This document shows positions 50,877-53,049 of a stretch of DNA of 64,000 nt, piece after piece (the first letter of the stretch is position 1; every line of letters begins with the position of its first letter). The position numbers and the translations under genes were made by a program. Source of the DNA: Gammaproteobacteria bacterium (GTDB lineage: Bacteria; Pseudomonadota; Gammaproteobacteria; Burkholderiales; Burkholderiaceae_C); NCBI GenBank assembly GCA_025359085.1, contig JANYHL010000096.1, positions 1 to 64,000 on the forward strand, in the 5' to 3' direction. A model generated the notes under the pieces. The model searched no databases. It was given only the letters and a program-made list of their open reading frames with translations, and was not told the origin of the DNA.

Positions 50877-52415
50877 CTATCCTTGCGCGGCGACCCGATC
50901 GGCTTTGCTTTGCAGTTTACTGAGGGCACTCAGATAGGCTTTGGCGGACGCCACAATGATATCGGGGTCGGCCCCGACGCCGTTAACGACGCGCCCGCTG
51001 TGCTGCAAACGCACCGTCACCTCGCCCTGGCTTTCGGTTGAACCGCTGATGGCTGTGACTGAGTAGAGCACCATCTCGGCACCACTTTTGACCTGCGTTT
51101 CAATGGCCTTGAGCGATGCATCCACCGGGCCATCCCCGTCAGACGAACTTTTCACTTCCGTGCCGTTGATCGTGAAAACAATGCTGGCTTGGGGACGTTC
51201 GCCCGTTTCACTGTGTTGCGACAGGGATACAAAACCATACTGCTCCTTCTCGCGAGCCAGGCTTTCACTGCTGACAAGGGCCAGGATGTCTTCGTCAAAA
51301 ATCTCGCTTTTGCGATCCGCCAACTCCTTGAATCGGGCGAAGGCGGCGTTAATATCAGACTCGCTTTCCATCTGCGCACCCAAATCCTGCAAACGTTGCT
51401 TGAAGGCATTTCGGCCACTGACTTTACTCAGCACAATTTTGTTGGCGCTCCAGCCCACGTCTTCGGCACGCATGATTTCATAGGTGTCACGCGCCTTTAA
51501 AACGCCATCCTGGTGAATCCCTGCCGCGTGGGCAAACGCATTGGCACCCACAATTGCCTTGTTGGGTTGAACTGCAAAGCCGGTGATCTGGCTGACCATG
51601 CGACTGGCGGCCAAAAGCTGTGTGGTTTCGATGCCCACGACCAGGTCAAAATAGTCGCGTCGGGTCTTGATGGCCATGACGATCTCTTCCAGGCTGCAAT
51701 TGCCCGCCCGTTCACCGAGGCCATTGATGGTGCATTCGACCTGCCGGGCACCCCCAATTTGTACGCCCGCCAGGGAGTTGGCCACCGCCATGCCCAGATC
51801 GTTGTGGCAATGGACCGACCAGATGGCTTTGTCTGAATTGGGTACGCGCTCGCGCAGGGTCTTGATGAAAGTTCCATAGAGCTCAGGAATGGCGTAACCG
51901 ACGGTGTCAGGCACATTGATGGTGGTGGCACCGTCGTTGATCACGGCCTCGATGACCCGGCACAAAAAGTCCGTGTCGCTGCGGTAGGCGTCCTCCGGGC
52001 TGAATTCCACATCGGCAACCAGATTTCGGGCAAAGCGCACCGCCAGGCGGGCCTGCTCAAACACCTGGTCCGGTGTCATGCGCAGTTTTTTCTCCATGTG
52101 CAGCGCCGAGGTGGCAATAAAAGTATGGATACGCCCGCGGTTGGCGCCTTTGAGTGCTTCGGCAGCGCGTGAAATATCGCGGTCATTGGCGCGCGACAGC
52201 GAACAAATGGTGGAGTCCTTGATGGCGTTGGCAATGCCTCGTATGGCCTCGAAATCACCGTTGGAACTGGCTGCAAAACCAGCTTCAATGACGTCTACTT
52301 TCAGACGTTCCAACTGGCGTGCAATGCGCAGCTTTTCGTCTTTATTCATGGATGCGCCAGGCGACTGCTCGCCGTCACGTAATGTGGTGTCAAAAATAAT
52401 TAGTTGGTCGGCCAT
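50877..52415 (-). CDS. leuA: 2-Isopropylmalate synthase
   Basis: First committed step of leucine biosynthesis: condensation of acetyl-CoA with 2-oxoisovalerate. The 512-residue protein from ATG 52415 begins [20 protein letters not shown] (metal and acyl site) and has [19 protein letters not shown] (metal histidines), [12 protein letters not shown] and [13 protein letters not shown]. The C-terminal LeuA regulatory domain (from about residue 390) for leucine feedback is present. AGGAGAAACCAG precedes the start. Expression is controlled by an attenuator with a leucine leader peptide immediately upstream. Confidence 0.97.
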
Positions 52416-52462
52416 CTGGTTTCTCCTGTGTTCGAAAATATCCGCAATCAAAAATATCGGGG

Positions 52463-52505
52463 TAAAAAAACCAAAAGCCCGTTGCGGATGCATACGGGCT
52501 TTTGG
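52463..52505 (-). terminator. Attenuator terminator upstream of leuA
   Basis: On the minus strand CCAAAAGCCCGT (52494-52505) pairs perfectly with ACGGGCTTTTGG (52471-52482) around an 11-base loop and is followed by TTTTTTTACC, a strong intrinsic terminator 48 bp before the leuA start. The arm GCCCGT (52494-52499) can instead pair with ACGGGC in the leader coding region (52535-52540), giving an antiterminator. A second pairing, ATCCGCAA in the loop with TTGCGGAT at 52440-52447, is also possible. Confidence 0.9.
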
Positions 52506-52523
52506 TTTGGGTGCGTGCGTACG

Positions 52524-52574
52524 CTACCGTCTCCGCCCGTCAGGCAGCAGCAGGGCTAGCGACATGTTTTTCAT
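52524..52574 (-). CDS. leuL: leu operon leader peptide
   Basis: A 16-residue frame from ATG 52574 to TAG 52524-52526: MKNMSLALLLPDGRRR. It has four Leu codons, three of them consecutive (CTG CTG CTG). The antiterminator segment ACGGGC overlaps the codons just after the Leu run (Asp-Gly-Arg), exactly where a ribosome stalled for charged tRNA-Leu would leave it free. When leucine is plentiful the ribosome reaches the stop and the terminator downstream can form. Confidence 0.85.
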   Translation of the reverse strand: MKNMSLALLLPDGRRR

Positions 52575-52644
52575 AGGGTCAATGTACCACAGTTGGGCGT
52601 TTGACCTGACACTTGAGGGCTCTTTGATCAAGAAAGCCCCAACA

Positions 52645-53049
52645 ATGAATATTTCCACTTTTGCTGACTTGCTACAGGCGGCACGTCAACAAACCGAACC
52701 ACAACGCTTGCTCTTTGTTTTTGCCAGCGCTGAATTACCCACGGATGCGACGTCGGCGCAGCGAGAGCGTTTTTTGGCCGGGCAGGGCGGAGCGCTGGTG
52801 CCCATCATGTGCGTGGACAAGACACCCAATGAGCTCGGCAGTTTTGCCGATCTGACGGAGGAATCACATCAGTTTGGACAAATGTGGCAGATCGTCTTCG
52901 CCGCTGCCCTGCCTGGCCACGGTGGGCTCGCGCCAAGCAGTGCGGCTGCTGAAGCTGCGTTGCAGCGCATGGTCGAAGCGATCAAAGCGGGTAACTTGGG
53001 AACACTCATTCCATTTGACCGACAGGGCCAGGCTTTGCTGCTTGGCTAG
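52645..53049 (+). CDS. Conserved hypothetical protein
   Basis: Soluble protein of about 134 residues, beginning MNISTFADLLQAARQQTEPQ and continuing LLFVFASAELPTDATSAQRE. It contains GALVPIMCVDKTPNEL and ends AGNLGTLIPFDRQGQALLLG. No catalytic motif, signal peptide or membrane segment is seen. I recall close relatives in Comamonadaceae, sometimes labelled as ribonucleotide-reductase-related without evidence; I would not transfer that name. ATG 52645 was chosen from a longer open frame that runs antisense through leuA. It is divergent from the leu leader. Confidence 0.75.
   Translation: MNISTFADLLQAARQQTEPQRLLFVFASAELPTDATSAQRERFLAGQGGALVPIMCVDKTPNELGSFADLTEESHQFGQMWQIVFAAALPGHGGLAPSSAAAEAALQRMVEAIKAGNLGTLIPFDRQGQALLLG

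What the first reader, a model, noticed from the sequence alone, without database searches (positions are those of the whole stretch)
52416..52574. Complete leucine attenuator in front of leuA, with a 16-residue leader peptide
Seen: a leader frame MKNMSLALLLPDGRRR with three consecutive CTG Leu codons; a perfect 12-bp terminator stem followed by seven Ts; and a GCCCGT terminator arm that can pair instead with ACGGGC inside the leader just after the Leu codons. These are the parts of classical ribosome-mediated attenuation, in the right order. An additional ATCCGCAA/TTGCGGAT pairing near the ribosome-binding site could add a translational layer. The leader is too short for normal gene callers.
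Basis: partly seen in the sequence, partly recalled or inferred. Interest (0 to 1): 0.7.

Follow-up and report, generated by a model that had tools for sequence, protein, structure and literature searches.

The report
Leaderless leucine attenuator before leuA
In front of the leucine-synthesis gene leuA lies a leucine-sensing RNA switch whose tiny peptide gene appears to begin at the very first base of its messenger RNA, an arrangement that relatives in many bacterial families share.

Summary
Leader ORF MKNMSLALLLPDGRRR (52574-52524), a 12-bp terminator stem plus 7 T, and an ACGGGC/GCCCGT antiterminator precede leuA (ATG 52415). It is most likely a leucine attenuator: leader and promoter box recur in 71 of 106 distinct leuA loci of the family, the terminator covaries, and CTA, rare in leuA, dominates the leader Leu codons (168/329 against 12/2621). 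In other families of the order a promoter-blind scan finds a -10 ending 6-10 nt before ATG in 49 of 54 leaders, 24 families. Outside the family intrinsic terminators are scarce (2/53) and a C-rich, G-poor stretch follows the leader stop. Leader-peptide attenuation is known, and leaderless leaders are known in Sinorhizobium and Streptomyces: a new variant of a known kind. Nothing was measured.

The parts
52581..52589 (-). extended -10 promoter element TGGTACATT (TG 52589-52588, hexamer 52586-52581); predicted +1 is A52574
   Evidence: Ends 6 nt before the leader ATG; 6, 7 or 8 nt in 71 motif-selected loci; promoter-blind scan 59 of 64 with the innermost ATG, the other 5 having the box before an in-frame upstream ATG; only match of TGTGNTAHANTN{6,8}ATG in the genome
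52524..52574 (-). leader peptide ORF MKNMSLALLLPDGRRR, Leu codons CTA, CTG, CTG, CTG; no Shine-Dalgarno
   Evidence: SD core 0 of 71 leaders against 67 of 71 leuA starts
52535..52540 (-). region 2, ACGGGC, antiterminator 5' arm inside the leader ORF
   Evidence: 97.3% of cells pair with region 3, but the core hardly varies, so there is no covariation evidence
52494..52508 (-). region 3, terminator 5' arm AAACCAAAAGCCCGT; its GCCCGT also pairs with region 2
52464..52482 (-). region 4, terminator 3' arm ACGGGCTTTTGGTTT (52482-52468) and run of seven T (52470-52464)
   Evidence: compensatory changes at two pairs of the stem in relatives
52482..52489 (-). ATCCGCAA, terminator loop and first base of the 3' arm, partner of region 5
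52440..52447 (-). region 5, TTGCGGAT, downstream partner between terminator and leuA ribosome-binding site
   Evidence: In relatives the own partner beats permuted partners: mean 6.85 against 5.10 (sd 0.12), 0 of 500 permutations as high, 103 loci
52423..52427 (-). leuA Shine-Dalgarno AGGAG
   Evidence: Sequence
50877..52415 (-). leuA, 2-isopropylmalate synthase, 512 aa
   Evidence: NCBIfam TIGR00973 leuA_bact equivalog, 693 bits, cut-off 598.7

Best explanation
This is a ribosome-mediated, leucine-responsive transcription attenuator of leuA whose leader peptide is read from a leaderless mRNA. RNA polymerase starts at or within a few bases of A52574, so the 5' end of the RNA is the leader AUG and ribosomes load on that AUG without a Shine-Dalgarno (inferred from promoter spacing, not measured). 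With enough Leu-tRNA the ribosome reaches the stop codon, covers ACGGGC, and the 52508-52468 terminator forms. With too little Leu-tRNA the ribosome waits at the CTA/CTG codons, ACGGGC stays free, pairs with GCCCGT and transcription runs into leuA. With no ribosome, in about two thirds of the relatives ACGGGC is predicted to be held by an upstream protector hairpin, so termination would be the default. In read-through RNA of many relatives the terminator loop/3' arm can pair with a segment further downstream, which fits the antiterminated fold; what that helix does is not known.
For: Conservation: 71 of 106 distinct family loci with leader and promoter box; of the 35 others a covariance model finds the element in 21 at E <= 2.2e-7, 17 of them about 1.8 kb further upstream. 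Codon: CTA 168 of 329 leader Leu codons against 12 of 2621 in leuA; 71 of 71 leaders have at least one. Geometry: GGGC at leader nucleotide 39 or 42 in 64 of 71 (36 in the window); modelled stalls with codon index 7 or 8 in the A site give the antiterminator in 71 of 71, indices 11 and later mask it in at least 69 of 71. Terminator covariation: A-U to C-G in 14 and G-C to A-U in 15 of 67 distinct sequences. Leaderless: -10 box 6-8 nt before ATG, C at -1 in 61 of 71, no SD; other families 49 of 54 at 6-10 nt, -35 TTGC/TTGA 17-18 bp before the -10 in 44 of the 49, equal-width control windows 0-3 of 53. In Burkholderia cenocepacia a TA-rich promoter motif lies directly upstream of mapped leaderless genes (PMC4603805, passages read).
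Against: No transcription start, peptide or leucine response has been measured. The antiterminator core hardly varies, so comparison neither supports nor denies that pairing, and its outer pair is broken in 8 of 67 sequences. The terminator is 6-7 kcal/mol more stable than the antiterminated fold on average in 43 loci and about 11 in the window, so the switch must be kinetic. The protector is predicted in only 47 of 71 loci. The -10 box was part of the selection; only searches are promoter-blind. Three loci found by the model (L023, L078, L101) have no -10 box in place. Of the terminator's covariation measures, two exceed all shuffles and two do not. In Rfam no leader family reaches its gathering score.
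Confidence: 0.82

Rival explanations
1. Same attenuator, but the leader is made from an ordinary mRNA with a longer 5' UTR starting at a promoter further upstream; the TACATT box is a chance or minor promoter.
For: No consensus sigma-70 promoter was found in 52400-52900 by the scan; no -35 is conserved in the family.
Against: Spacing of 6-8 nt in the family and 6-10 nt in 24 other families, mostly with a -35 at 17-18 bp; SD cores before 0 of 71 and 2 of 53 leaders.
Confidence: 0.12
2. The conserved TGTGNTACA stretch is an operator for a regulator and not a promoter.
For: TGT-N3-ACA is palindromic in the window and many relatives.
Against: The palindrome decays in relatives (TGCTAAAGT, TGATAAAGT, TGCTAGAGT) while TA...T stays; other families have TATATT/TATAGT instead.
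Confidence: 0.03
3. Only a terminator that lowers leuA expression; the ORF is not translated or not regulatory.
For: Apart from the Leu run and the codons over the antiterminator arm the peptide varies; no translation data.
Against: CTA enrichment, Leu positions fixed relative to the antiterminator arm, Leu-rich ORF present in other families.
Confidence: 0.03

Closest known systems
Enterobacterial leu attenuator (Rfam RF00512 Leu_leader; its details are recalled, from no call)
   Same: Short leader with Leu codons including rare CTA, competing antiterminator and terminator in front of leuA
   Different: No match to RF00512 even at E up to 5; leader here predicted to start at the 5' end of the RNA; extra conserved helix downstream of the terminator
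Sinorhizobium meliloti trpL attenuator (PMC7298713, passages read)
   Same: 5' end of the attenuator RNA is the ATG of the leader ORF; leaderless
   Different: Senses tryptophan; Alphaproteobacteria; different peptide and RNA
Streptomyces lividans leuL1 before leuA (PMC8079986, passages read)
   Same: Leu-rich leader before leuA, transcribed leaderless
   Different: Actinobacteria; authors report no typical Rho-independent terminator; related actinobacterial leuA regions carry the LEU pseudoknot element (PMC1262725, passages read)
Campylobacter jejuni leuL (PMC3847290 and PMC11955535, passages read)
   Same: Leu leader before leuABCD using rare Leu codons CUA, CUC, CUG
   Different: Epsilonproteobacteria; start codon seen by initiation-site profiling; the passages read do not call it leaderless

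Membership tests
Ribosome-mediated transcription attenuator (leucine) | Short ORF rich in codons of the end-product amino acid | tested here: met
Ribosome-mediated transcription attenuator (leucine) | Intrinsic terminator between leader and structural gene | tested here: met
   covariation
Ribosome-mediated transcription attenuator (leucine) | Alternative antiterminator pairing whose availability depends on ribosome position | tested here: inconclusive
   Fits in modelled folds; no covariation support because the core hardly varies
Ribosome-mediated transcription attenuator (leucine) | Read-through rises when charged Leu-tRNA falls | not testable with these tools
   Needs RNA or reporter measurements
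Leaderless leader-peptide mRNA | -10 box placed so that +1 falls on the start codon; no Shine-Dalgarno | tested here: met
Leaderless leader-peptide mRNA | Mapped 5' end at the start codon | not testable with these tools
   No transcriptome data on hand
Rfam RF00512 Leu_leader | Score at or above gathering threshold | tested here: not met
   No RF00512 hit; best other hit there Thr_leader, 28.3 bits against a gathering score of 55

The most novel reading that the evidence does not exclude
A leaderless leucine leader peptide in front of leuA is ancestral in the Betaproteobacteria and reaches other orders of the class. Most families terminate transcription without an intrinsic terminator, perhaps through Rho loading on the C-rich stretch after the leader stop codon. 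The window's family has swapped this for an intrinsic terminator plus a covarying helix downstream of it that locks the antiterminated fold or acts on leuA translation, while keeping initiation on the 5' AUG.
Probability: 0.35. Interest if true: 0.75.

Novelty: new variant of a known kind. Interest (0 to 1): 0.55.

Why it matters
Leaderless translation is usually treated as marginal in these proteobacteria (recalled). A regulatory leader that keeps its AUG at the promoter-defined start across some two dozen families suggests that leaderless initiation is under selection here, possibly because it ties the sensing ribosome to the polymerase from the first base. The same locus appears in two termination modes in related families, so a change of one attenuator from non-intrinsic to intrinsic termination could be studied directly. 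The conserved helix downstream of a terminator is not part of the textbook model and invites a test.

Tried and rejected
Reading the feature on the + strand: rejected, leader and leuA are on the minus strand. Rfam as a source of a name: no leader family at gathering score in the window or any family in 20 other-family loci; the sub-threshold Thr_leader hit (28.3 bits) is far below its cut-off. Other leaders of the same design in the genome: the pattern has one match, this locus (the pattern read backwards, as a control, also matched once). Covariance model R1 outside the family: 0 of 40 loci, so an R1 search underestimates breadth; its order-wide run found 19 of 399 genomes, 12 of them of the family, three of the other seven only over the terminator half. 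The downstream helix does not form by itself in the window's antiterminated fold (locus L001), although it does in 30 of 43 tested loci. Two mistakes of mine, mended: L135 was first framed on the wrong end of leuA, and L255 was fetched from the wrong end. re-reads L135 and reads the right stretch, L271. Literature: listings; no paper on a leuA leader in Betaproteobacteria appeared among them (searches were aimed nearest to that). Corynebacterium glutamicum leader peptides before trpE, leuA, ilvB and aroF are mentioned in PMC3890552 (passages). Vitreschak 2004 on proteobacterial attenuators was seen only as a reference, not read.

Full report
What is there. On the minus strand, 5' to 3': an extended -10 box TGGTACATT (52589-52581), six bases, the leader ATG at 52574, sixteen codons MKNMSLALLLPDGRRR, TAG ending at 52524, a terminator (5' arm 52508-52494, 3' arm 52482-52468, T run 52470-52464), TTGCGGAT at 52447-52440, AGGAG at 52427-52423 and leuA ATG at 52415. 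The downstream protein is LeuA (TIGR00973 equivalog). The strand folds far better than shuffles (z -4.3 and -5.1). When the terminator 3' arm is not yet made, the best fold pairs ACGGGC with GCCCGT, but that fold is no more stable than shuffles (z -0.8).

Relatives in the family. 106 are distinct in the bases before leuA. 71 of 106 have a leader of fewer than 25 codons with at least 3 Leu preceded by TGNTANNNT; the box ends 6 nt (41), 7 nt (29) or 8 nt (1) before the start codon, where 2-14 were allowed. That motif was part of the selection, so I repeated the scan without it: of 106 loci, 64 have an ATG ORF of 10-34 codons with at least 4 Leu in 8 codons. Taking the innermost ATG, 59 of 64 have TANRNT ending 6-8 nt upstream, and the other 5 have the box in place before an in-frame upstream ATG; taking the outermost ATG, 54 of 64. 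Other windows of the same width hold 0-7. A Shine-Dalgarno core lies before 0 of 71 leaders and 67 of 71 leuA starts. C precedes the ATG in 61 of 71, and no -35 element is conserved.

Of the 35 loci without the motif hit, model R1 (built on 68 of the 71; L030, L091 and L107 were left out for unusual length) finds the element in 21 at E <= 2.2e-7 and weakly in two more, L097 and L110. In 17 of the 21 it lies about 1.8 kb upstream, and in all 17, and in L097 and L110, a second type of leuA (PRK03739/TIGR00970 type in L080; 66-76% identical in the others) lies between. Not all fit: L023, L078 and L101 have no -10 box in place, and in L052, L063, L064, L087 and L119 the spacing is 10 nt. Of the 12 loci with no match, nine (L002, L010, L014, L016, L024 to L028) have only 1.5 kb of flank; for one of them, L027, the same genome shows the element further upstream (L113).

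Leucine sensing. CTA is 168 of 329 leader Leu codons and 12 of 2621 Leu codons of the same leuA genes; 71 of 71 leaders have at least one CTA and 67 have two or more. The window is one of the four with a single CTA. The GGGC of region 2 begins at leader nucleotide 39 or 42 in 64 of 71, at 36 in the window. I modelled ribosomes with each codon in the A site, masking 12 nt beyond its first base: at codon index 7 and 8 (ATG is 0) the antiterminator forms in 71 of 71, at 9 in 63, at 10 in 27 with 43 masked, at 13 in none. With no ribosome, region 2 pairs upstream (protector) in 47 of 71. The terminator covaries: column pairs 114-143 and 115-142 change together in 14 and 15 of 67 distinct sequences with one break (14 and 16 of 68 rows). 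Changed cells and covariation score exceed 500 of 500 shuffles; the number of changed pairs and of pair types does not, and shuffles ignore relatedness. The antiterminator pairs in 97.3% of cells, but its core hardly varies because both arms serve two helices, so comparison is silent on it; its outer pair is broken in 8 of 67.

The downstream helix. For each, the nine bases before the terminator's GGGC were matched with bases 10-60 beyond it. In 63 of 103 distinct loci the own partner scores 7 or more, where swapped nonamers give about 10; the mean is 6.85 against 5.10 (sd 0.12) when nonamers are permuted, 0 of 500 as high; in 47 of 103 the own nonamer is in the top 5% of swaps. Forty loci do not show it. 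Pairs change together at several positions (C-G, T-A, A-T, rows chosen for score 7 or more, so illustrative only). The helix uses the loop and first bases of the terminator 3' arm. When the antiterminator is enforced it forms unaided in 30 of 43 tested loci, and keeping region 5 single costs about 7 kcal/mol on average, although not in the window itself. It could hold read-through RNA in the antiterminated fold, form a pseudoknot with the terminator, or act on leuA translation; I cannot decide.

Beyond the family. I took 100 leuA upstream regions from 42 other families of the order (100 of the 152 genomes outside the family with a match). One (L145) is only 71 bases long and one (L135) was first read on the wrong end. 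As first run, 56 have a Leu-rich short ORF, 53 of them with ATG; with L135 re-read it is 57 and 54. With no promoter condition, 49 of 54 have TANRNT ending 6-10 nt before the ATG (6: 19, 7: 18, 8: 4, 9: 6, 10: 2), in 24 families; windows of equal width further upstream hold 0-3 of 53. TTGC or TTGA stands 17-18 bp before the -10 in 44 of 49. SD cores: 2 of 53 leaders, 39 of 53 leuA in a slightly wider stretch. The five that fail are L144, L146, L162, L209 (whose second ATG fits) and L135 (TATTCT, 7 nt before ATG, just outside the pattern). Forty-three of 100 regions showed no such ORF, among them both f9 regions and the one f4 region. Among 40 regions from other families of the class (one refetched), 19 have an ATG Leu-rich ORF and 8 of these have the box at 6-8 nt, so 11 do not.

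Outside the family only 2 of 53 leaders have an intrinsic-terminator-like site by a strict rule; a looser scan marked 4 of 40 loci. 41 of 53 have at least three times as much C as G in the 20 bases after the stop (controls 1-3 of 49-53), and 46 of 53 match GCGC...GCGC over the last codons (not tested against codon bias). This looks like a different termination mode, perhaps Rho-dependent, which is inference. That these leaders and those of the family descend from one ancestor is also inference: position and promoter agree, the peptides' ends differ.

Known work. Leader-peptide attenuation is textbook. Leaderless leaders are in print for S. meliloti trpL and S. lividans leuL1. B. cenocepacia has mapped leaderless genes with the promoter directly upstream, but the paper's main text does not mention leuA. 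My searches nearest to a betaproteobacterial leuA leader listed none; most subscription journals are absent from that library.

Verdict. The finding is sound and its plain reading is ordinary. The leaderless start, its breadth across families, and the covarying helix past the terminator are what deserve attention.

Noticed in passing
L080:734-2473 and the 16 other loci with the element about 1.8 kb upstream, also L097 and L110: In Polaromonas, Variovorax, Ramlibacter and other loci the attenuator stands before a second-type leuA (PRK03739-like) that lies directly upstream of the usual leuA, so two isopropylmalate synthases would share one leucine switch.
   Followed up: yes
L131-L230, upstream of leuA: Outside the family many leaders end in LLLR-x-AR, their last codons can form a GCGC-NNN-GCGC hairpin, and a C-rich, G-poor stretch follows the stop codon, mostly without an intrinsic terminator.
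   Followed up: partly
L131-L230, between -35 and -10 of the leader promoter: Many promoters carry GGAAAAAGCC or similar in the spacer just before the -10 box (seen by eye, not counted).
   Followed up: no
window 52524-52509: After the leader stop a GC-rich run (CGCACGCGC in most relatives of alignment A1, by eye) is conserved and could form a very small hairpin ahead of the terminator.
   Followed up: no
L123-L126: Four genomes of another family (f9, genus g143) carry a related leader (MDTR...GRR) in front of second-type leuA (67-70% identical to that of L080); two of them had only weak matches to the usual LeuA.
   Followed up: partly
window 52645 onward, + strand: A divergent open frame (MNISTFADLLQAARQQ...) may begin 71 bases from the leader ATG, so its promoter would share this short interval.
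   Followed up: no
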